A stretch of DNA of 64,000 nucleotides from Patulibacter minatonensis DSM 18081. Lineage in GTDB: Bacteria > Actinomycetota > Thermoleophilia > Solirubrobacterales > Solirubrobacteraceae. Of this stretch, positions 22,982-49,218 are shown one piece after another. Numbering within the stretch: position 1 is the first letter of the stretch; every line of letters begins with the position of its first letter. The notes beneath the pieces were generated by a model, which ran no database searches, was not told where the DNA came from, and saw nothing but the letters and a program-made list of their open reading frames with translations. The stretch covers positions 2,269,261-2,333,260 of the forward strand of contig NZ_KI912613.1 of assembly GCF_000519325.1 (NCBI RefSeq). The letters run 5' to 3'. Both the position numbers and the translations under genes were made by a program.

Positions 22982-24019
22982 ATGCCGCGCTCCTCCCCGC
23001 CGACCGACGCCATCCCCGAGCCGGTGACCGTCACCGAGCCCCGCCGGGCCGGCCGTGGCCTCGTGCCCGCCGTCGCCGCCCGCGGGGTCCGCGGCGCGCT
23101 CGACGGGCTCGTCGCGGCGGCCGGGCAGGTCGGCCGCACGGCGCTGGCCCCCGCGGCCGCCCCGGCCCGGGGGATCCTCGCCGCAGCGGGGGCCGCCGCC
23201 CGCGCCCGGATCGGCCGGGCCGACCTCGACGACCGCGACAGCCTGCTGGTCCGGGACGTCATGCCGGTGGCGTGGATGGTCGCCAGCACGTGGTTCCGGG
23301 CGGAGGTCCGCGGCCTGCACCACATCCCGCGCGACGAGCCGGTGCTGCTCGTCGGCAACCACTCCGGCGGCAACGTCACCCCGGACTCGTTCGTCTTCGC
23401 GCTCGGGTTCGCGAGCCACTTCGGGCCCGAGCGCCCGATGCACGTGCTCGTCCACAACCTCGTCTCCGCCTACCCGGGGCTCGGGTTCCTGCGGCGCCTG
23501 GGCACGCTGAACGCGGACCCCCGGGTCGCGAAGGAGGCCCTCGCGGCCGGGTCGTGCGTGCTGGTCTACCCGGGTGGCGACCACGAGGCGCACCGCCCGA
23601 GCACGCAGTCCACGCGCATCGACTTCGGCGGACGCTCGGGCTTCGTCCAGCTCGCCCTCGACGCCGGCGTCCCGATCGTCCCCGTCGTCTCGATCGGCGG
23701 CCAGGAGACGGCGCTGTTCCTCGGCCGGGGCGAGCGGCTCGCCACCTTCCTCGGTGCGGACCGCCACCTGCGGCTCAAGTCGATGCCGATCTCGCTCGCG
23801 TTCCCGTGGGGCCTGAACGTCGGCGATCTCCTCGGGCACGTCCCGTTGCCGTCCAAGATCGTCGTGCAGGTGCTGCCGCCGATCGACCTCCGCGCACGCT
23901 TCGGCGAGCACCCGGACCAGCAGGAGGTCTACGACCACGTGACCGGCACGATGCAGGAGATGCTCACCGAGCTCGGGCGTCGACGGCGGATCCCGGTCGT
24001 CGGGTGGGAGCGCCGATGA
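22982..24019 (+). CDS. PlsC-type (lysophospholipid) acyltransferase
   Basis: A 345-residue protein. The acyltransferase motif is VLLVGNHSGGNVTPDSF (residues ~117-133), a variant of NHxxxxD in which the Asp is five residues further on (NHSGGNVTPD); FGPERPMHVLV, CVLVYPGGDHEAHRP and VPIVPVVSIGGQET are motifs II-IV of this family. A basic, helical N-terminal 70 residues may bind the membrane. It probably acylates a glycerolipid. Its stop overlaps the start of the fused ligase (ATGA at 24016-24019), so acyl activation and acyl transfer are translationally coupled. The ATG at 22982 is the first in a non-shadow context. Confidence 0.9.
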   Translation: MPRSSPPTDAIPEPVTVTEPRRAGRGLVPAVAARGVRGALDGLVAAAGQVGRTALAPAAAPARGILAAAGAAARARIGRADLDDRDSLLVRDVMPVAWMVASTWFRAEVRGLHHIPRDEPVLLVGNHSGGNVTPDSFVFALGFASHFGPERPMHVLVHNLVSAYPGLGFLRRLGTLNADPRVAKEALAAGSCVLVYPGGDHEAHRPSTQSTRIDFGGRSGFVQLALDAGVPIVPVVSIGGQETALFLGRGERLATFLGADRHLRLKSMPISLAFPWGLNVGDLLGHVPLPSKIVVQVLPPIDLRARFGEHPDQQEVYDHVTGTMQEMLTELGRRRRIPVVGWERR

Positions 24020-26124
24020 GGCTCGCGGAGCGCATCGACGTGCCCGTGGCGCCGGAGCGGGCGTGGCGGACGATCATCGACCCGCGCGTGATCGCGCGGA
24101 CGCTGCCGGGACTCGTCTCCTTCACGGTCCTCGGCGAGGGACCGCTGAAGCAGGGCACCCGGGTCCGGTCCGTCCTCGCGATCGGCGCCGCGGAGCTCGG
24201 GTCCGAGCTCGAGGTGACGGTGCTCCGCGACGGACGCGACCTCGTGGCCGTCGGCGTCACCGGCATCGACCTCCACGTCGCCGTGCGCGTCCGGCCCCAG
24301 GGCGACGGCGCCCGCATCACCGTGCGCGCCGGCTACAACCCGCCCGGTGGCGTGCCGGGCGCCCTGGCCGGGCTCGTCGCGCTGCCGGAGATGCGGCGCC
24401 GCCTGCGCGAGATGCTCCGCGGCGTCGAGCGCCTGCTGCTGTCCGAGGAGCCCGCCCAGCCGCTGCCGGGACCGCTCCAGCTCGCGACGTCCGCCGTCCG
24501 GTCGGTCCGTGTGCTCGGCCGCGCGGGGATCCTGCGCCCGATGCGCCCGGACAAGTACGCCACGATCGCCCGCCAGTTCGCGCGCTGGGGGGCGACGCCG
24601 GCCGGCGCGTACGCGGCCGCGGCCACCCGCGACCCGCACCGGATGGCGCTGATCGACGGCGACCGCGCGCTGACCTACGCGGAGCTCGACCAGCGCAGCA
24701 CGGCGCTGGCCGTCGCGCTCCGCGACCGCGGGGTCGCGGAGGGGCACCGGGTCGCGATCGTCTGCCGCAACCACCGCGGGTTCGTCGAGGCGCTCGTCGC
24801 GGTCAGCAAGGCCGGGGCCGACGCGCTGCTCGTCAACACCGGCTTCGCCGCGCCGCAGATCCGCGCGGTGTTCGACCGGGAGCGCCCCACGGCGCTCGTC
24901 TGCGACGCCGACCTGCTGGGCGTCATGGACGAGGCCCTCGGGGCGGCGACGGGGGCGCAGGGTGCGCGGGGCGCGGACGGGATCTCCCGGGTCGTGTCGG
25001 CGTGGGACGAGGACCACCCGCCCAGGAGCGGCGTGCGGTCCCTCGAGGAGCTGATCGTCGAGGGCGCCGACCGTCCGCTGCCGGCTCCCGGATCGCCGGG
25101 GCGCGTCGTCCTGCTGACGTCCGGCACGACCGGCGTCCCGAAGGGCACCCGCCGCGCCCGCGTGTCGCTCGACGCGCCCGTCTCGTTCCTCGACCGCATG
25201 GCGTACCGCGACGGGGGCACCTTCCTGATCGCGCCGCCGCTGTTCCACGCCTGGGGGTTCGCGAACCTCCTGATGGCGCTGCTGCTCGGGTCCACGGTCG
25301 TGCTGCGCCGGGACTTCGACCCCGAGGACGTCCTGCGGTCCGTGGCGCGCCACGGCGTCGACGTCCTCGTGGCGGTGCCGGTGATGCTCGGGCGGATCCT
25401 CGAGCTCGACCCCGCCGTCCGGGACGGCTACGACGTCTCGCGGCTGCGCGTCACCGCGTCGTCGGGCTCCGCGCTCCCCGGGGACCTCGCGACCCGGTGG
25501 ATGGACGCCTTCGGTGACGGCCTCTACAGCCTGTACGGCGCGACCGAGGTCGGCTGGGGTGCGATCGCCGACCCGGCGGACCTCCGCGCCGCGCCCTCGA
25601 CGGCCGGCCGGATCCCGCGCGGCGCGTCCGTCCGCATCTTCGACCGCGGCGGCGTGCCGCTGCCCAGCCACCGCACCGGGCGGATCCACGTCGGCGGCGG
25701 GATGACGAACGACCGGTACACCGACGGCACGCGGCTGCCGCAGCGGGACGGGCTGACGCAGACCGGGGACGTCGGCTACCTCGACGACCTGGGCCGCCTG
25801 TTCGTGCTCGGCCGCGAGGACGACATGATCGTCTCCGGCGGCGAGAACGTGTACCCGCGCAGCGTCGAGGACGTGCTCTCGGCGCATCCCGCCGTCTCCG
25901 AGGTCGCCGCGATCGGCGTACCGGACGACGTCTACGGCGAGCGGATCGCGGTGTTCGTGGTCAAGGCCCCCGGGGCGCGGCTGAGCGCGAAGGCGGTGCG
26001 CGACCACGTCCGTGCGGAGCGGCCCCGGTTCGAGGTCCCGCGCGATGTCGTGTTCCGGGACGCGCTGCCGCGGAACGCCACGGGCAAGATCCTGCGGCGC
26101 GAGCTCCGGGCCGCAGGGAGCTGA
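24016..26124 (+). CDS. SRPBCC domain fused to acyl-CoA synthetase (AMP-binding)
   Basis: A single 702-residue frame. Residues 1-~145 form a SRPBCC domain (MRLAERIDVPVAPERAWRTI, PRVIARTLPGLVSFT, GDGARITVRAGYNPPGG). Residues ~170-702 form a fatty-acyl-CoA synthetase: LTSGTTGVPKGT (A3 loop, near 368), YSLYGATEVGWG, TGDVGYLDD, GREDDMIVSGGENVYP and the catalytic Lys691 in NATGKILRREL. The linker ILRPMRPDKYATIARQF is the usual N-terminus of the mycobacterial FadD12-like ligases. There is no ATG between the domains in a conventional position, so a true fusion is likely. It activates a carboxylic acid, probably feeding the overlapping acyltransferase. The five-module TetR operon follows on the same strand. 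Confidence 0.9.
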   Translation: MRLAERIDVPVAPERAWRTIIDPRVIARTLPGLVSFTVLGEGPLKQGTRVRSVLAIGAAELGSELEVTVLRDGRDLVAVGVTGIDLHVAVRVRPQGDGARITVRAGYNPPGGVPGALAGLVALPEMRRRLREMLRGVERLLLSEEPAQPLPGPLQLATSAVRSVRVLGRAGILRPMRPDKYATIARQFARWGATPAGAYAAAATRDPHRMALIDGDRALTYAELDQRSTALAVALRDRGVAEGHRVAIVCRNHRGFVEALVAVSKAGADALLVNTGFAAPQIRAVFDRERPTALVCDADLLGVMDEALGAATGAQGARGADGISRVVSAWDEDHPPRSGVRSLEELIVEGADRPLPAPGSPGRVVLLTSGTTGVPKGTRRARVSLDAPVSFLDRMAYRDGGTFLIAPPLFHAWGFANLLMALLLGSTVVLRRDFDPEDVLRSVARHGVDVLVAVPVMLGRILELDPAVRDGYDVSRLRVTASSGSALPGDLATRWMDAFGDGLYSLYGATEVGWGAIADPADLRAAPSTAGRIPRGASVRIFDRGGVPLPSHRTGRIHVGGGMTNDRYTDGTRLPQRDGLTQTGDVGYLDDLGRLFVLGREDDMIVSGGENVYPRSVEDVLSAHPAVSEVAAIGVPDDVYGERIAVFVVKAPGARLSAKAVRDHVRAERPRFEVPRDVVFRDALPRNATGKILRRELRAAGS

Positions 26125-26373
26125 TCTCCGGTTCCCCGAAGAGCTCCCGGGGGCCGGACCCGACGATCCGATCCCGCTGCGCAGGACGTCCCGATACGCT
26201 CGGAGGGTGAGCGTCGGTCCCCCACCCGCGAGCACGCCCCGCCTCCCGGGAGCGTCATCGATCCCGGCCCGTCCCGGTGGCCGTCGTGCATCCGGCATCG
26301 CCGCGGGCCGCGTACCCGCGACGGTCGACGTGCCCCGCCCCGCCTCCTTCCCCGGCGCCCGAGCAGGTGCCCG

Positions 26374-27645
26374 ATGAGCCGCCGTCCCGGTGAGCCGCAC
26401 GCGCCCGACGCCGCGGTCGAGCTCGAGGGTCGCGTCCTGCCCGGTGCTGGTCTGACGGTCGCCGAGCGGATGGCGATGGAGGCCGCGGTCCCGGAGCTGA
26501 AGCCGCGGGTGCGCGAGATCGTCGACGTCGCCCGGGAGATCCTCGACGAGGAGGGCGTCGACGCGATCTCGATGCGGGCGATCGCCACGCGCCTCGAGGT
26601 GCGGGCGCCGTCGCTCTACAAGCACCTGCCCGACAAGCAGGCGATCCTCGACGTCCTGACCGCGGACATCCTGCACGAGAACGGCGTCGTCATGCGGGCG
26701 GCGATCGCCGGCACCGACGACCCGGTCGGCGCGATCTTCGCGGCCTTCCGCCGGTGGGTGCTCGAGCACCCCGAGCGGTACGCCGCGTGCATGGCCGGAC
26801 CCCTCGCCGACACGCCGCTCGTCCGCTCGGCGGCGCTCTACAGCGGCGACCCGCTGCGCTGGATCATGCGCGACGACCTCGACGGCGCGATCACGTTCTG
26901 GGCGTTCGCGCACGGCCTGGTCGACCTCGAGATCCGCGGTCGGCTGCCCGCGGTGTACGACACGGACGTCCTGTGGTCGTGGGGCGTCGCACGGCTCCGG
27001 CACGCGGACGACGGCGCGGCGACGCCCGACGTCCGCGCCGAGGACGCCGCGGCCGCCGCCCGGCGCGGGCTGGTGCCGGTGCCGGAGCCGCTGTCCGAGC
27101 GGGCGGCCCGCATCGTCGACGCCGCGCGCGAGCTCCTGGACGCCGAGGGCGAGGAGCGCATGTCGATGCGCGGGATCGCCGACCGGCTCGACGTCCGCGC
27201 GCCGTCGCTCTACAAGCACTTCCCGGACAAGGAGGCGCTCGAGAAGGCGATCATCGCCTCGGTGCTCGACGAGCAGGCCGCGCTGTGGCGCGCGGCCTCC
27301 GCCGACGCCCGGGCCGCGGGCGAGGACCCGCTCCTCGCGATCATCGAGCGCTTCCGCCTGTGGGCGCTCGAGCACCCCCACCTGCACCGGCTGGTCACCG
27401 TCGGGCCGCCCGACCGCGGGCCGCTGGTCGCCTCCGCGGAGCTCCAGGCCTCGCTGCCGCTGCTCGACGCCTGCGACGGCAGCGGGGTCGCCGCCGTCAG
27501 CGTGTGGGCGTTCGCGTGCGGGATGATCGATCTCGAGCTCAAGGACCGCATGCCTCCGGGCTACGCGCTCGACGCGATCCGGCGTCGCGGCGTCGGCGCG
27601 CTCCGCGCCACGCCGTTCGCGCCGGCGGAGGGGTCCGACCGATGA
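26374..27645 (+). CDS. Tandem (double) TetR-family regulator 1
   Basis: A 423-residue protein with two complete TetR modules in one chain. Module 1: HTH at ~64-92 ([20 protein letters not shown]) and a C-terminal WHG-like core near 166-194 (DGAITFWAFAHGLVDLEI). Module 2: HTH at ~260-287 ([20 protein letters not shown]) and core GVAAVSVWAFACGMIDLEL. TetR proteins normally have one module of ~200 residues and dimerise on palindromic DNA; here a single chain could make a pseudo-dimer. The recognition helices RAPSLYKH are identical. It overlaps the next gene (ATGA) and opens a three-gene operon. No close partner other than the upstream ligase suggests the targets. Confidence 0.93.
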   Translation: MSRRPGEPHAPDAAVELEGRVLPGAGLTVAERMAMEAAVPELKPRVREIVDVAREILDEEGVDAISMRAIATRLEVRAPSLYKHLPDKQAILDVLTADILHENGVVMRAAIAGTDDPVGAIFAAFRRWVLEHPERYAACMAGPLADTPLVRSAALYSGDPLRWIMRDDLDGAITFWAFAHGLVDLEIRGRLPAVYDTDVLWSWGVARLRHADDGAATPDVRAEDAAAAARRGLVPVPEPLSERAARIVDAARELLDAEGEERMSMRGIADRLDVRAPSLYKHFPDKEALEKAIIASVLDEQAALWRAASADARAAGEDPLLAIIERFRLWALEHPHLHRLVTVGPPDRGPLVASAELQASLPLLDACDGSGVAAVSVWAFACGMIDLELKDRMPPGYALDAIRRRGVGALRATPFAPAEGSDR

Positions 27646-28883
27646 GCACGGACGCCGAGCGGGAGCTCGGGGGGCGGGTGCTCCCCGGTGCCGGGCTGTC
27701 CGTCCCCGAGCGGCTGGCCGTCGAGGCCGCGGTCCCGGAGCTCAAGCCGCGGGTGCGCGAGATCGTCGACGTCGCCCGCGTGCTGATGGAGGAGGAGGGC
27801 GTCGCCGCGCTCTCCATGCGCGCGATCGCCGGCCGCGTCGGCATCCGCGCCCCCTCCATCTACAAGCACCTGCCGGACAAGCAGGCGATCCTCGACGTCC
27901 TCGTCGCCGACGTCCTGCGCGAGAATGGCGACGTCCTCCGCGAGGCGATCTCCGGTGCGGACGACCAGCTCGGGGCGTTGCTCCACGCGTTCCGGCGCTG
28001 GGCGCTGGCGAACCCCGCCGGCTACGAGCTGGTCATGGACGGGCCGCTCGGCGACTCGCCGCTGGTGATGTCCGCGGCGCTCCACAGCGGTGATCCCCTG
28101 CGCTGGGTCATGCGCGACGACCTCGAGGGCGCGATCGTCCTGTGGGCCTTCGCGCACGGTCTCACGGGGCTCGAGATCTCCGGGCGCATGCCGGTCCCGT
28201 ACGACCCCGAGCCCGTGTGGGCGTGGGGCGTCGAGCGGCTGCGCCACCCCGAGGACGACACCCCGACCCCCGCGGTCCCGAGCGTCGGACCCGCGGCCGC
28301 CGCGCAGTTCCGCGCGCAGCTGCCCGACGACGTCGCGTTGACCCCGCGCGCCGCCCAGATCGTCGCGGTCGCCCGCGACCTGCTGGAGGAGGAGGGCGAG
28401 GAGGGCATGTCGATGCGCCGGATCGCCGCGCGGCTCGGCGTGCGCGCGCCGTCGCTCTACAAGCACCTGCCCGACAAGCAGGCCCTGGAGAACGCGATCG
28501 TCGCGTCGATCCTCGACGACCAGGCCCGGGACGCCCGCGACGGCCTGGACCGGGCCGACGCCGAGGGGCTCGACCCGCTGACCACCATCGTCGACGGGCT
28601 CTACGCGTGGGCGCTCGAGCACCCCGCCCTGCACCGGCTGAACCTGCGGGGCCCGCTCGACCCGGGACCCCTCGTCCGGTCCGCGGAGATCCGCTCCGCC
28701 GGGCCGCTCCTGCGGGCGTGCGGCGGCGACGGGGTGGCCGCGGTCACGATCTGGGCGTTCCTCGTCGGGCTGCTCTCGCTCCAGATCAACGGCCGGATCC
28801 CGCCCGAGTACGAGCTCGACGCCGTCCGGCGCCGGGGCGTGGAGGCGCTCCGCCCGTCGGCGAGCCCGGCGGACGGCGCGTGA
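27642..28883 (+). CDS. Tandem (double) TetR-family regulator 2
   Basis: A 413-residue protein with the same layout as its upstream neighbour. Module 1: HTH at ~58-84 (LSMRAIAGRVGIRAPSIYKH) and core GAIVLWAFAHGLTGLEI. Module 2: HTH at ~253-280 ([20 protein letters not shown]) and core GVAAVTIWAFLVGLLSLQI. The N-terminal 40 residues (GGRVLPGAGLSVPERL, EAAVPELKPRVREIV) repeat those of the first gene almost word for word, so the genes arose by duplication. Start and stop overlap with neighbours at both ends (ATGA at 27642, GTGA at 28880). Confidence 0.93.
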   Translation: MSTDAERELGGRVLPGAGLSVPERLAVEAAVPELKPRVREIVDVARVLMEEEGVAALSMRAIAGRVGIRAPSIYKHLPDKQAILDVLVADVLRENGDVLREAISGADDQLGALLHAFRRWALANPAGYELVMDGPLGDSPLVMSAALHSGDPLRWVMRDDLEGAIVLWAFAHGLTGLEISGRMPVPYDPEPVWAWGVERLRHPEDDTPTPAVPSVGPAAAAQFRAQLPDDVALTPRAAQIVAVARDLLEEEGEEGMSMRRIAARLGVRAPSLYKHLPDKQALENAIVASILDDQARDARDGLDRADAEGLDPLTTIVDGLYAWALEHPALHRLNLRGPLDPGPLVRSAEIRSAGPLLRACGGDGVAAVTIWAFLVGLLSLQINGRIPPEYELDAVRRRGVEALRPSASPADGA

Positions 28884-29494
28884 GCAGCACCGCCCGACCA
28901 CAGCGGGTCCTGACGTCGTCCGACGACGACCTGCGCGAGGTCCGCGAGGAGGAGCTCGCGACCCTCGAGGTGCCGGTCCTCAGCGACCGTGCGCAGCAGA
29001 TCGTCGAGGTCGGCCTGGAGCTCCTGGAGGAGGACGGGCCCGAGGGCGTGTCGATGCGGCTGGTGGCCGCGCGCCTGGGCGTCCGGGCCCCGTCGCTCTA
29101 CAAGCATCTGCCGGGCAAGCAGGCGATGGAGAACGCGATGATCGCGATCGGCCTGCGGCGTCAGGGCGCGGCGTGCGAGCAGGGCATGCGCGAGCACGAG
29201 GACGACCCGCTCTGGGGCGTCGTCACCGCCTTCCGCCGGTGGGCGCTCGACCACCCGCACCTCTACGAGCTGATGATGGCTCAGCCGCTGGACCCCGGGC
29301 CGCTGGTGCGGTCCGCGGAGCTCACGGCGGGCCGGGCGATCCGCGAGGTCATGGACGGCGACGTCGTCGGCGCGCTGACGATGTGGTCGTTCGGGCACGG
29401 ACTGGTCGCGCTGGAGCTCAACGGCCGCCTGCCTCCCGGCGCGGACGTCGAGCAGCTCTGGCGTCGCGGCACCGACGCCCTCCGACCGCGCTGA
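28880..29494 (+). CDS. Single-module TetR-family regulator
   Basis: A 204-residue TetR protein. HTH at ~56-84 ([21 protein letters not shown]), then a WHG-type ligand-binding core ([20 protein letters not shown]). The recognition helix matches those of the four modules upstream. The GTG start at 28880 overlaps the previous stop (GTGA), so all three genes are translationally coupled. It could dimerise normally and compete or cooperate with the double proteins. It is followed by an unrelated glycosylase gene with its own start region. Confidence 0.93.
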
Positions 29495-29564: not shown

Positions 29565-30839
29565 GTGACGTCGTCCCAGACCCCGTTGCGCCTGACGGTC
29601 CCGCAGGCCCGTCGCATCGCGCTGGCCGCGCAGGGCTTCGCCGACCGGCTGCACCGCAACCCGCCCGGGACGCCGACCGGGGCGCACCTGCAGCGCGTGC
29701 TCGACCGGGTCGGGCTGCTGCAGATCGACTCGGTGAACGTGATCGCGCGGGCGCACCTGCTGCCGGTCTTCAGCCGGATGGGGCCGTACGACTTGGCGCT
29801 GCTGGAGCGCGCGACGGCCCGCCGGCCGCGGCGCCTCGTCGAGTACTGGGGTCACGAGGCGTCGTTCGTGCCGCCGGAGACCCACCGGCTGCTGCGCTGG
29901 CGGATGGCCCGGATCGCCGAGGAGGGCTGGGGGATGATCCGCCGGGCGGGCGAGCAGCCGGAGCTCCTCTCCGCGGTCGAGGCGGAGATCGAGGCCCACG
30001 GGCCGCTGACCGCGGTCGAGCTCGAGCGCCGGCTGGAGGCCGATGCCGAGGCGGGGCTCCTCGACCTCGGGAACCGCCAGGGCAACGGCTACGCGTGGAA
30101 CTGGTCGGGCATCAAGCGCGCCCTGGAGTACCTCTTCTTCACCGGGCGCGTGACCTCCGCCGGCCGCACGCCGCAGTTCGAGCGCCGCTACGACCTGCCC
30201 GGGCGCGTCCTGCCGCCCGCCGTCCACGAGGCGCCCGACCCCGAGCCCGCGGACGCGCAGCGCGAGCTGATCCGGATCGCGGCGCAGGCCCACGGCGTGG
30301 CGACGGAGCAGTGCCTGCGCGACTACTTCCGCCTGAGCCCCGCGCAGGCGAAGCCGGCGATCGCAGCACTGGTCGAGGTCGGCGAGCTCCTGCCGGCGAC
30401 GATCGACGGCTGGAAGCGCCCCGCGTACCTCCACGTGGACGCCCGCCGTCCCCGCACGGTCGACGCCCGCGCGCTCCTGGCGCCCTTCGACCCCCTGATC
30501 TTCGAGCGGACCCGCACCGAGCACCTCTTCGGCTTCCGCTACCGCCTGGAGATCTACGTGCCGCGCGAGAAGCGCGTCCACGGCTACTACGTCCTGCCGT
30601 TCCTCCTCGGCGACCGCCTCGTCGCCCGCGTGGACCTGAAGGCCGACCGCGCGGCGGGCCGCCTGCTCGTGCGGTCGGCGCACGTCGAGGGCCACGTCCG
30701 CGACCGGGAGCACGTGGCGACGGAGCTCCACGCGGAGCTGCGGTCGATGGCCGGCTGGGTCGGGCTGGGCGAGGTCGTCGTGGAGGACCGCGGGGACCTC
30801 GCGCCGGAGCTGGCGCGGGCGGACTCCGGAAGTCCTTGA
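29565..30839 (+). CDS. YcaQ/AlkX-type DNA glycosylase (HTH_42 winged-helix protein)
   Basis: A 424-residue protein of the family that removes bulky alkylated bases and unhooks interstrand crosslinks (E. coli YcaQ, Streptomyces AlkX/AlkZ). The catalytic QxD motif is present as Q53-I-D55 in [14 protein letters not shown]. Other signatures: [42 protein letters not shown] and [19 protein letters not shown]. It acts on DNA in the cytoplasm. GTG start at 29565, with a TACGAT-like -10 about 10 bases upstream, suggesting a leaderless or near-leaderless transcript. The hipB promoter overlaps its stop codon. Confidence 0.93.
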
Positions 30840-30879: not shown

Positions 30880-31206
30880 ATGGGCAGGAAGACCATCTCA
30901 CCGGTCGCCCGGCACGCCGGCGATTTGCTGGGGGCGTCGGTCCGTGCGGGGCGGATCGATCGAGGGTGGACGATCGACCTGCTCGCCGAGCGCGCACAGG
31001 TCGACCGCAAGACCGTGATGAGGGTCGAGCGCGGGGATCCGGGTGTCGCACTGGGCACCGCGCTCGACTGCGCGTCGTTGGTCGGCGTCGCCCTGTTCTA
31101 CGACGACGAACGCCGCCTCGCGGCAGAAGTGGCCCGCGGGAGGGCCCCGTTGATCGGCCGTCGCGTCCGCCCCGCGGCGGGCCCGGAGCCGAATCTTGAC
31201 TTCTGA
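30880..31206 (+). CDS. HipB-like antitoxin (XRE family)
   Basis: A 108-residue helix-turn-helix protein: ASVRAGRIDRGWTIDLLAERAQVDRKTVMRVERGDPGVALGTALDCASLVG (residues ~20-70) is a canonical XRE domain. The C-terminus is short and basic with a final NLDF. HipB proteins bind DNA and the HipA kinase, repressing the operon and neutralising the toxin. It overlaps hipA by 11 bases (hipA starts with TTG at 31196). The start ATG at 30880 was preferred to one eight bases upstream that is out of frame. Confidence 0.9.
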   Translation: MGRKTISPVARHAGDLLGASVRAGRIDRGWTIDLLAERAQVDRKTVMRVERGDPGVALGTALDCASLVGVALFYDDERRLAAEVARGRAPLIGRRVRPAAGPEPNLDF

Positions 31207-32431
31207 GGCCTACGTCTGGGCGTGGTTGCCGGGCGCGACGGAGCCGGTCCCGGTCGGCGTGGCGCGGGAGCGTGGGCCGCTCGTCGAGTTCGCGTACGGA
31301 TCCCGGTATCTGCAGCGCGCCGACGCGATGGCGCTCTGGGACGAGGAGCTCCCGCTGCGGGGCGGCTTCCAGGAGCCGCTGCCGGGGCTCCAGATCGCCG
31401 GCTGCCTGAGCGACGCCGGCCCGGACAGCTGGGGGCGCAGGGTGATCCTCAACCGACTCGCGGGCCGTGATGCCGACTTCGACGCCCTGTCGCCGCTCAC
31501 CTACCTGACGGCGGCGGGACCCGATCGCATCGGTGCGCTGGACTTCCAGCCGTCCCCGCGGGAGTACGTTCCTCGCGGGTCGCCGTCGGCGTCGCTCGGG
31601 GACCTCCTGGAGATGGTCGAGAACGTCGAGATGGGTCGGCCCGTGCCCGCTGCCCTCGAGGACGCCGTGCGGGCCGGATCGTCGGTCGGCGGCGCGCGAC
31701 CGAAGGCGCTCCTGCGGGACGGTCCGCGAAGCCTGATCGCGAAGTTCAGCGCCCCGACAGACACGTGGCCGATGGTCCGCGGCGAGTTCCTGGCGATGCG
31801 GATGGCCGCCCGGTGTGGCCTAGACGTCGCGGAGGTGGAGCTCGAGCGGGTCGCCGATCGCGACGTCCTGCTGGTCGAGCGCTTCGATCGCGTGCCCGGG
31901 ACGACGCAGCGGCGCGCTGTCGTCTCGGCGCTCACGCTGCTGCAGATCGGGGAGATGTGGCCGGCGGCCGCTGCCTATGGCGATCTGGCGGAGCTGATGC
32001 GCCGCCGATTCTCGGCGCCGCGAGAGAGCCGGCGGGAGCTGTTCTCGCGCATGGTCTTCAACGTCCTGTGCGGGAACACCGACGACCACGCCCGCAACCA
32101 CGCGGCATTCTGGGATGGTCGGGAGCTGACGCTGACCCCGGCCTACGACATCTGCCCCTTCCTGCGCTCGGGAGGGGAGGCGTCCCAGGCGATGCGCCTC
32201 GGCACCGGCGAGGACCCCGGTCGCCTGTCCAACGTGGGGGAATGCGTCGCTCGAGCCGACCTGTATGGCCTGACCCGGGACGACGCGCTCGAGATCGCCC
32301 ACGCCCAGCTCGACACCATCCGCGCCGCCTGGGACGAGGCCTGCGACGAGGCCCGCCTCGCGACCACTGAACGTCGGCTCCTGGGCCGGGTCTTCCCGCA
32401 CGAGTACGCGCTGTACGACCTGGAGGGGTGA
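31196..32431 (+). CDS. HipA-like serine/threonine kinase toxin
   Basis: A 411-residue HipA-type kinase, a family that phosphorylates cytoplasmic targets such as glutamyl-tRNA synthetase and slows growth. Visible motifs: N-terminal VGVARERGPLVEFAYGSRYL, the Gly-rich loop GSSVGGARPKALL, ATP-binding LIAKFSAP, LLVERFDR, the catalytic loop NTDDHARN (294-301) and the metal-binding YDICP (D318). Length is close to E. coli HipA (440). Start is TTG at 31196, overlapping the antitoxin, an arrangement that gives antitoxin excess. It is the last gene before the Tn402-like element. Confidence 0.93.
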   Translation: MTSEAYVWAWLPGATEPVPVGVARERGPLVEFAYGSRYLQRADAMALWDEELPLRGGFQEPLPGLQIAGCLSDAGPDSWGRRVILNRLAGRDADFDALSPLTYLTAAGPDRIGALDFQPSPREYVPRGSPSASLGDLLEMVENVEMGRPVPAALEDAVRAGSSVGGARPKALLRDGPRSLIAKFSAPTDTWPMVRGEFLAMRMAARCGLDVAEVELERVADRDVLLVERFDRVPGTTQRRAVVSALTLLQIGEMWPAAAAYGDLAELMRRRFSAPRESRRELFSRMVFNVLCGNTDDHARNHAAFWDGRELTLTPAYDICPFLRSGGEASQAMRLGTGEDPGRLSNVGECVARADLYGLTRDDALEIAHAQLDTIRAAWDEACDEARLATTERRLLGRVFPHEYALYDLEG

Positions 32432-47691: not shown

Positions 47692-49218
47692 TCACCCCAC
47701 GTCCAAGGCCTCCACCGCCGCCCGGAAGCGGTCCCCCCGGTCCTCGAAGTCCCGGAACACGTTGTGGCTCGGGGCCGCGGGGGAGAGGAGGACCGTCGCG
47801 CCCGGCGGGGCGATGCGGACGGCGGCCGCGACGGCCGCGGCGCTGACCGTGTCCGGATCGCCGTCGGGGACGACCTCGATCGCGGGGTGCGACCCGTCGC
47901 CGGACGCGTCGGACCCATGGGCGGTGGGCGCCGCGCCGTCGCCGCTGCAGGCCCGCGCCAGCGCCTCCGCCAGCGCCGGTCCCGTCCCAGGCAGGGCCAC
48001 GAGGCCCGCGACGCTGACCTCGGCCGGCGGCTCGCCGATCGCGCCCGTCGGCACCCGGCCGGTCGCCAGGGCGTCGACCAGCGCGGCGTACTCCTGGTCG
48101 CGGTCCACGCCGCCCGCGAGGAGGACGACCGGGCCCGGGGCGAAGGCGGCGATCGCGGCCATGGCGGCCTCCGGGGTGGTCGAGATCGAGTCGTCGACCC
48201 AGGTCCGGCCCGCGCGGGTGGAGACGATCTCCTGGCGGTGGGGGAGGGTCGCGAAGTCGCGCAGGGCTCCCGCGAGGTCGGGGATCTCGTGGCCGAGGGC
48301 CCGGACGCACTCGAGCGCCGCGCAGACGTTGCGGGCGCCGATCACGCCGCGGACGGGCAGCTCGTCGACGCCGCAGAGGTCGTTCGGTCCGTCGAGCACC
48401 CGGCCGCCCGCGACGTGCAGGCCGTGCGGCTCGTCGACCCACAGGACCGGGGCGCGGAGGCGCTCGGCGGCGTCACGCAGCCGGGGATCGGCGTGCGACA
48501 GGACCGCCAGCCGGGGGCCGTCGCCGGCGGTCAGGATCCGCAGCTTGTCGGCGTGGTACGTCGCCTCGTCGCCGTGCCACGGCAGGTGGTCGCGCAGCAG
48601 GTTCGTGACGACCGCGACCGTGGGGGACCGGGGCAGGTCGGCCAGCTGGTAGCTCGAGAGCTCCAGGACCCACGCGTCGGGGGAGCGCGCGGGGCGGAGC
48701 TCGTCCAGGAGCGGCGCGCCGATGTTCCCCATCAGGCGGCTGGAGATCCCGGCCTTGCCGAGCAGGTGGTGCAGGAGCGAGCTGGTGGTGCTCTTGCCCT
48801 TCGTGCCCGTGATGCCGATGACCGTCTCGGTCGACGCGCGCTCGGCGAGCCACAGCGCCGTGCCGCTCGTCAGGACCGCCCCGCGGGACCGGACGTGGTC
48901 GGCCTCGGGGCCACGGACCGGCACGCCCGGGGACCGGATGACCACGTCGCAGGACGCCAGCGCGTCGAGGCCCCCGTCGCCGTGCAGCCACGGGACCGGC
49001 GCACCACCGGGACCGGGGGGGAGGGGCGCCGCCCCGGCGGGCGGCGGGCCGGACGTCGCGACCACCGCGGTGCACGTCGGCGCGTGTGCGGCGAGCGCCC
49101 GGATCGCCGCCGCGCCCTCGCGCCCGGCACCCCAGATGCCGACGCGCCGGCCGGCCAGGTCGTCGACGCGGAGGTCGGCCGGCGGGAGCGGCGGGGGCGG
49201 CAGCGGGTCCACGGGCAC
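47692..49218 (-). CDS. MurD-family Mur ligase (possibly MurD2 type)
   Basis: A 508-residue Mur ligase: adds glutamate to UDP-MurNAc-L-Ala in peptidoglycan synthesis, with ATP. N-terminal VGIWGAGREGAAAIRAL (Rossmann-like), P-loop GITGTKGKSTTSSLL, LELSSYQLADLPRSP, NLLRDHLPWHGDEATYHADKLRIL and C-terminal PHRQEIVSTRAGRTWVDDSISTTPEAAMAA. WGAGREG at the N-terminus is reminiscent of the MurD2 group that uses L-Glu with the epimerase MurL; that assignment is uncertain and no murL is here. No other cell-wall gene is adjacent, unlike a dcw cluster. GTG at 49218 chosen; GTG at 49212 also possible. Confidence 0.9.
   Translation of the reverse strand: MPVDPLPPPPLPPADLRVDDLAGRRVGIWGAGREGAAAIRALAAHAPTCTAVVATSGPPPAGAAPLPPGPGGAPVPWLHGDGGLDALASCDVVIRSPGVPVRGPEADHVRSRGAVLTSGTALWLAERASTETVIGITGTKGKSTTSSLLHHLLGKAGISSRLMGNIGAPLLDELRPARSPDAWVLELSSYQLADLPRSPTVAVVTNLLRDHLPWHGDEATYHADKLRILTAGDGPRLAVLSHADPRLRDAAERLRAPVLWVDEPHGLHVAGGRVLDGPNDLCGVDELPVRGVIGARNVCAALECVRALGHEIPDLAGALRDFATLPHRQEIVSTRAGRTWVDDSISTTPEAAMAAIAAFAPGPVVLLAGGVDRDQEYAALVDALATGRVPTGAIGEPPAEVSVAGLVALPGTGPALAEALARACSGDGAAPTAHGSDASGDGSHPAIEVVPDGDPDTVSAAAVAAAVRIAPPGATVLLSPAAPSHNVFRDFEDRGDRFRAAVEALDVG

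What the first reader, a model, noticed from the sequence alone, without database searches (positions are those of the whole stretch)
26374..29494. Operon of three TetR genes holding five TetR modules (2+2+1)
Two consecutive genes encode proteins with two complete TetR modules each, and a third gene adds one more, all overlapping by ATGA/GTGA. The recognition helices are nearly identical (RAPS-L/I-YKH in all five), so these are recent duplications. A single-chain TetR pseudo-dimer would change operator choice and stoichiometry, and three related proteins could form mixed dimers. The overlapping arrangement implies fixed ratios. I know of no described system of this kind.
Basis: partly seen in the sequence, partly recalled or inferred. 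Interest (0 to 1): 0.78.

Follow-up and report, generated by a model that had tools for sequence, protein, structure and literature searches.

The report
Expanding array of fused TetR regulators
Three overlapping genes in a Patulibacter actinobacterium carry five copies of a TetR gene-switch module, four of them fused in pairs; fused TetR pairs are already known from Mycobacterium (Mce3R), but a run of them that can be seen growing from species to species is an unusual variant that I found described nowhere.

Summary
Genes at 26374-27645 (423 aa), 27642-28883 (413 aa) and 28880-29494 (204 aa) overlap by ATGA/GTGA and encode 2+2+1 complete TetR modules (five PF00440, five PF13305). It is not an assembly artefact: the genome is one contig and in-frame double genes recur in three other Patulibacter assemblies.

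Two interpretations fail. The modules are not recent duplicates: A and B are 62% identical, no closer than either is to the G007 double, and the RAPSLYKH helix is a family-wide motif. And single-chain double TetRs are described: Mce3R (Rv1963c, PDB 9b7y) is the best whole-chain structural match to both AlphaFold models, with about 204 more predicted in actinomycetes.

What is new is the locus. Between a conserved acyl-lipid/murL block and alkZ, Patulibacter species carry 0, 1, 2, 2+1 or 2+2+1 modules, in an order that fits the species tree; all modules form one clade. The 2+2+1 form occurs only here among 399 class and 396 phylum genomes sampled.

Most likely each double folds into its own pseudo-dimer with two near-identical reading heads, insulating paralogues that share an operator type but have diverged ligand domains. 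Operator, ligand and stoichiometry are untested.

The parts
26374..27645 (+). Gene A, double TetR, 423 aa
   Evidence: AlphaFold pTM 0.84
26497..27009 (+). module A1 (HTH + TetR_C_33)
27091..27612 (+). module A2 (HTH + TetR_C_33)
27642..27645 (+). ATGA overlap of A stop and B start
   Evidence: sequence
27642..28883 (+). Gene B, double TetR, 413 aa
   Evidence: AlphaFold pTM 0.86
27741..28253 (+). module B1
28338..28856 (+). module B2
28880..28883 (+). GTGA overlap of B stop and C start
   Evidence: sequence
28880..29494 (+). Gene C, single TetR, 204 aa (module 28979-29488)
26125..26373 (+). 249-bp leader; murL occupies this place in other Patulibacter; no murL-like reading seen in its six-frame translation
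26195..26214 (.). candidate operator TACGCTC-N7-GAGCGT (6-bp inverted repeat over a possible -10); weak
22982..24019 (+). conserved neighbour: acyltransferase (PF01553)
24016..26124 (+). conserved neighbour: SRPBCC domain fused to FadD-like acyl-CoA ligase
29565..30839 (+). conserved neighbour: AlkZ-like DNA glycosylase (PF06224)

Best explanation
This is a lineage-specific array of TetR-family regulators. A single TetR gene sits between murL and alkZ in one Patulibacter lineage; in its relatives it was duplicated, two copies fused into a double TetR, and in this genome the double gene was duplicated again (2+2+1). Each double (A, B) most likely folds on itself into one pseudo-dimer that supplies both DNA-reading heads from one chain, as Mce3R does; C acts as an ordinary homodimer. 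Because all five recognition helices are nearly the same, all three should read the same kind of near-palindromic operator (unlike the asymmetric operator of Mce3R), while the diverged ligand domains let them answer to different, probably lipid or acyl-CoA-like, signals. Fusion keeps the co-made paralogues from forming mixed dimers. Shown here: gene structure, module homology, the graded series across species, relative conservation of the HTH over the ligand domain. Predicted: a compact two-module fold. Inferred only: pseudo-dimer DNA binding, shared operator, ligands, insulation.
For: Five full modules. Both AlphaFold models have a confident relative placement of the two modules from only five sequences (pTM 0.84 and 0.86), each module with a full set of about nine helices, joined by a short linker helix (221-231 in A). 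Best whole-chain structural match is Mce3R 9b7y: Foldseek rank 1 for A; VIA Z 16.2 over 333 residues for A and Z 18.4 over 333 residues for B, rank 1. All 14 Patulibacter modules form one clade (95/98) nested among single TetRs. At the murL-alkZ site: 0 modules in G005, 1 in G001, 2 in G004, 2+1 in G002 and G007, 2+2+1 here, in an order that fits the species tree. Among the five window modules helices alpha2/alpha3 are 71/83% identical and the ligand domain 44%; among 29 free singles 53/76% and 51%, so the reading heads are held while the ligand domains drift. Neighbours are acyltransferase and FadD-type ligase.
Against: The fit to Mce3R is loose as a rigid body (Foldseek TM 0.40-0.43, rmsd 11.6 A; VIA rmsd 8.9 and 7.8 A), so the modules may be arranged otherwise; coordinates could not be inspected, so head spacing is unmeasured. 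No operator was proven and no ligand is known. The HTH is more conserved than the ligand domain in TetR proteins generally. The link to the acyl-lipid operon is by position only, and in G005 the same neighbourhood has no TetR.
Confidence: 0.6

Rival explanations
1. The doubles pair between chains (A1 with A1, A2 with A2, or A with B or C), giving bivalent or mixed assemblies that bridge two operators or loop DNA; the three genes make a combinatorial set of mixed dimers.
For: Mce3R itself also homodimerises as pseudo-dimers and looping was proposed (PMC11667970). A1-B1 (67%) and A2-B2 (57%) are closer to each other than A1 is to A2 (45%), so cross-chain pairing of like modules is conceivable.
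Against: Both single-chain models give a confident intramolecular placement. Single-chain TetR with a linker folds intramolecularly and heterodimers were not seen for sc-TetR (PMC1797012). In Mce3R the intramolecular M1M2 fold was found and an M1-only protein did not bind the operator.
Confidence: 0.2
2. Largely neutral gene amplification: the extra modules are redundant or decaying copies, some with lost DNA or ligand binding, kept because they are in an operon.
For: Copy number varies between related species; ligand domains diverge fast (37-63% between modules).
Against: All five HTHs keep the recognition helix, all reading frames are intact with strong codon bias, and the doubles persist in four species.
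Confidence: 0.17
3. Separate genes joined by sequencing or assembly error.
For: None found.
Against: Single-contig genome; in-frame doubles in G002, G004 (Patulibacter americanus DSM 16676) and G007 from independent assemblies.
Confidence: 0.01

Closest known systems
Mce3R (Rv1963c), double TetR repressor of Mycobacterium tuberculosis, PDB 9b7y (PMC11667970)
   Same: Two complete TetR modules in one chain of about 400 aa; best whole-chain structural match to the models of A and B; lipid-metabolism genes among its targets or neighbours.
   Different: Probably an independent fusion: Patulibacter modules are nested within a family of single TetRs found in Thermoleophilia and are only 14-17% identical to Mce3R over the structural alignment. 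Two near-identical HTHs here, versus two nonidentical HTHs and an asymmetric 25-bp operator in Mce3R. Two doubles plus a single in one operon here.
Other predicted double TFRs of actinomycetes (about 204, cited in PMC11667970)
   Same: Double TetR architecture.
   Different: The paper read describes no array of doubles; those proteins were not examined here.
Engineered single-chain TetR (PMC1797012 and references there)
   Same: Two TetR copies in one chain joined by a linker, folding intramolecularly; made to avoid heterodimers.
   Different: Artificial, near-identical halves; here natural, with diverged halves (A1-A2 45%, B1-B2 44% identical).
Single TetR regulators of known structure such as SCO4313 (2oi8) and B. 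cereus 1zk8
   Same: Same module fold; closest single-module structures.
   Different: One module per chain.

Membership tests
TetR family regulators (PF00440 + TetR C-terminal domain) | N-terminal TetR_N HTH over the curated cut-off in each module | tested here: met
   five matches over cut-off
TetR family regulators (PF00440 + TetR C-terminal domain) | C-terminal ligand/dimerisation domain of a known TetR_C type | tested here: met
   PF13305 TetR_C_33 twice, twice, once
TetR family regulators (PF00440 + TetR C-terminal domain) | Binds DNA as a two-headed unit and is released by a ligand | not testable with these tools
   needs EMSA or ITC
Double TFR (Mce3R-like architecture) | Two complete TetR modules in one reading frame | tested here: met
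   genes A and B
Double TFR (Mce3R-like architecture) | Intramolecular four-helix bundle, heads about 32 A apart | tested here: inconclusive
   pTM 0.84/0.86; best match 9b7y with Z 16.2/18.4 but rmsd 8.9/7.8 A; coordinates not available
Mce3R orthologue group | Mce3R the nearest relative by sequence over both modules | tested here: not met
   Matches to Mce3R are weak and cover one module at a time, while singles of the same order or family match at 38-52% identity and the modules nest among such singles. Mce3R itself was not placed in the tree.
Mce3R orthologue group | Next to an mce/yrbE operon | tested here: not met
   Neighbours are acyltransferase, SRPBCC-FadD, alkZ

The most novel reading that the evidence does not exclude
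A natural multi-input repressor set: three insulated two-headed TetRs (two single-chain, one homodimer) from one operon that compete for the same operator but answer to different ligands, having grown stepwise by duplication and fusion within one genus, so that the steps of paralogue insulation by fusion can be read from living species.
Probability: 0.25. Interest if true: 0.68.

Novelty: new variant of a known kind. Interest (0 to 1): 0.42.

Why it matters
Double TetRs are known, but how they arise and why they are kept is not. Here related species carry 0, 1, 2, 2+1 and 2+2+1 modules at one conserved site, which makes the duplication, fusion and second duplication directly testable with proteins from living relatives. 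If the fusion insulates paralogues, it is a natural counterpart of the engineered single-chain TetR used in synthetic biology.

Tried and rejected
Recent duplication: rejected by identities and by the family-wide RAPSLYKH helix. Whether A is the strict orthologue of the G002/G007 doubles or A and B arose by duplication in this lineage: not resolved; A1 groups with G007/G002 module 1 while A2 groups with B2 in the large tree, but neither A1+B1 nor A2+G007d_2+G002d_2 is rejected by AU tests (p 0.35 and 0.11), and the whole-gene tree has only 48% support there. Gene conversion between A and B is possible but unproven. A remnant of murL in the 249-bp leader: none evident in its six-frame translation (by eye). 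A shared operator palindrome upstream of the acyltransferase across five species: none found; a promoter-like TCGAC...GATA stretch recurs by eye. Candidate operator at 26195-26214: one exact copy in the genome, 7 sites within one mismatch (two being the same place on both strands) against 1 for the backwards control: weak. Similar arrays elsewhere: none among 399 class and 396 phylum genomes with a family-specific profile; double TFRs of other TetR subfamilies would not be seen by that profile. No paper on Patulibacter TetR arrays was seen among the listed results.

Full report
Observation. Genes A (26374-27645), B (27642-28883) and C (28880-29494) are co-directional, overlap by four bases (ATGA, GTGA) and encode 423, 413 and 204 aa. 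Pfam finds TetR_N and TetR_C_33 twice in A, twice in B and once in C, over the curated cut-offs, and the genome-wide TetR_N scan shows the same five places. Third-position G+C of 0.95-0.98 supports all three frames. The genome has 96 TetR_N matches in total, so it is TetR-rich, but only A and B pair two at module spacing in one frame.

Relations between modules. A1-B1 are 67% identical and A2-B2 57%, other pairs 41-50%, so the double gene as a whole was duplicated after the fusion. The duplication is not recent: A-B is 62%, equal to A or B against the doubles of G002 and G007 (62-63%), whereas FadD and AlkZ orthologues are 82-86% identical between the same genomes.

Where it comes from. In six of the eight genus genomes held, the site can be read; in the four with murL upstream of TetR genes the order is acyltransferase, SRPBCC-FadD fusion, murL, TetR genes, alkZ, and in G005 murL is followed directly by alkZ. 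murL is missing from this place in the window; the only copy found in this genome is a divergent one (50%) at C1:661501. Between murL and alkZ there is no TetR in G005, one module in G001, one double in G004, a double plus a single in G002 and G007, and 2+2+1 here. A tree of FadD plus AlkZ rooted on G003 gives (((G000,(G007,G002)),G004),G001) apart from G005, the TetR-bearing group with 99/100 support and the G004 node weak. All 14 modules form one clade (95/98) inside a family of single TetRs; C groups with the G002, G007 and (81/84) G001 singles, the double modules form their own clade (97/92). Stepwise growth (0, 1, 2, 2+1, 2+2+1) fits; an ancestor with 2+1 and losses in G001 and G004 fits as well. 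With a profile of the doubles, full-length matches occurred only in Patulibacter among 399 class genomes and only in this genome among 396 phylum genomes.

Structure. AlphaFold models of A and B, each from five sequences, have mean pLDDT 85-86 and pTM 0.84 and 0.86, which implies a confident relative placement of the two modules. The best whole-chain match is Mce3R: Foldseek rank 1 for A (E 1.3e-5, TM 0.40-0.43), VIA Z 16.2 for A (tied with the single-module 1zk8) and 18.4 for B (rank 1), 333 residues aligned, rmsd 8.9 and 7.8 A. The large rmsd says that the modules are set at a different angle from DNA-bound Mce3R or are arranged otherwise; coordinates could not be read, so this stays open.

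What is known. Mce3R is a double TFR whose two halves form one intramolecular four-helix bundle with two HTHs 32 A apart, binding an asymmetric 25-bp site; it further homodimerises; 204 similar proteins had been predicted in actinomycetes (PMC11667970). The single-chain TetR principle is also established by engineering, where it serves to avoid heterodimers (PMC1797012). Not described in anything found here: a run of doubles plus a single in one operon, two near-identical HTHs per double, and the graded series across species.

Mechanism. Among the five window modules alpha2 and alpha3 are 71% and 83% identical and the ligand domain 44%; among 29 free singles the figures are 53%, 76% and 51%. 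Heads are held and ligand domains are diverging, which is what a set of regulators sharing an operator but sensing different ligands would show; the general conservation of TetR HTHs weakens but does not remove the contrast, because the singles serve as control. The neighbourhood suggests lipid or acyl-CoA ligands (inference). A candidate operator in the leader (26195-26214) is weak.

Verdict. Observation confirmed; architecture known in kind; the array and its graded series are a new variant worth a specialist's attention; function untested.

Noticed in passing
window 26125-26373; G000:C1:661501-662766: murL (UDP-MurNAc-L-Ala-L-Glu epimerase; NF041275 E 3e-121 for the G007 copy, below that model's curated cut-off) is missing at this locus although present there in other Patulibacter; this genome's only copy found lies elsewhere and is 50% identical to G007's. 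G003 has a copy of similar distance.
   Followed up: partly
window 47701-49215 (-): The MurD-type ligase that lies next to alkZ in other Patulibacter is about 17 kb away here, so the region between alkZ and murD (about 30.8-47.7 kb) looks inserted or rearranged.
   Followed up: no
window 30880-32431: HTH_31 gene followed by a HipA-like kinase gene, a HipBA-like toxin-antitoxin pair, within the possibly inserted stretch.
   Followed up: no
window 24016-26124: SRPBCC (Polyketide_cyc2) domain fused to the N-terminus of a FadD-type acyl-CoA ligase, conserved in Patulibacter.
   Followed up: partly
G000:C1:2553467-2553486 (-): Near copy (TACGCTCGGAGGATGAGCGA) of the candidate operator at window 26195-26214; context not examined.
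   Followed up: no
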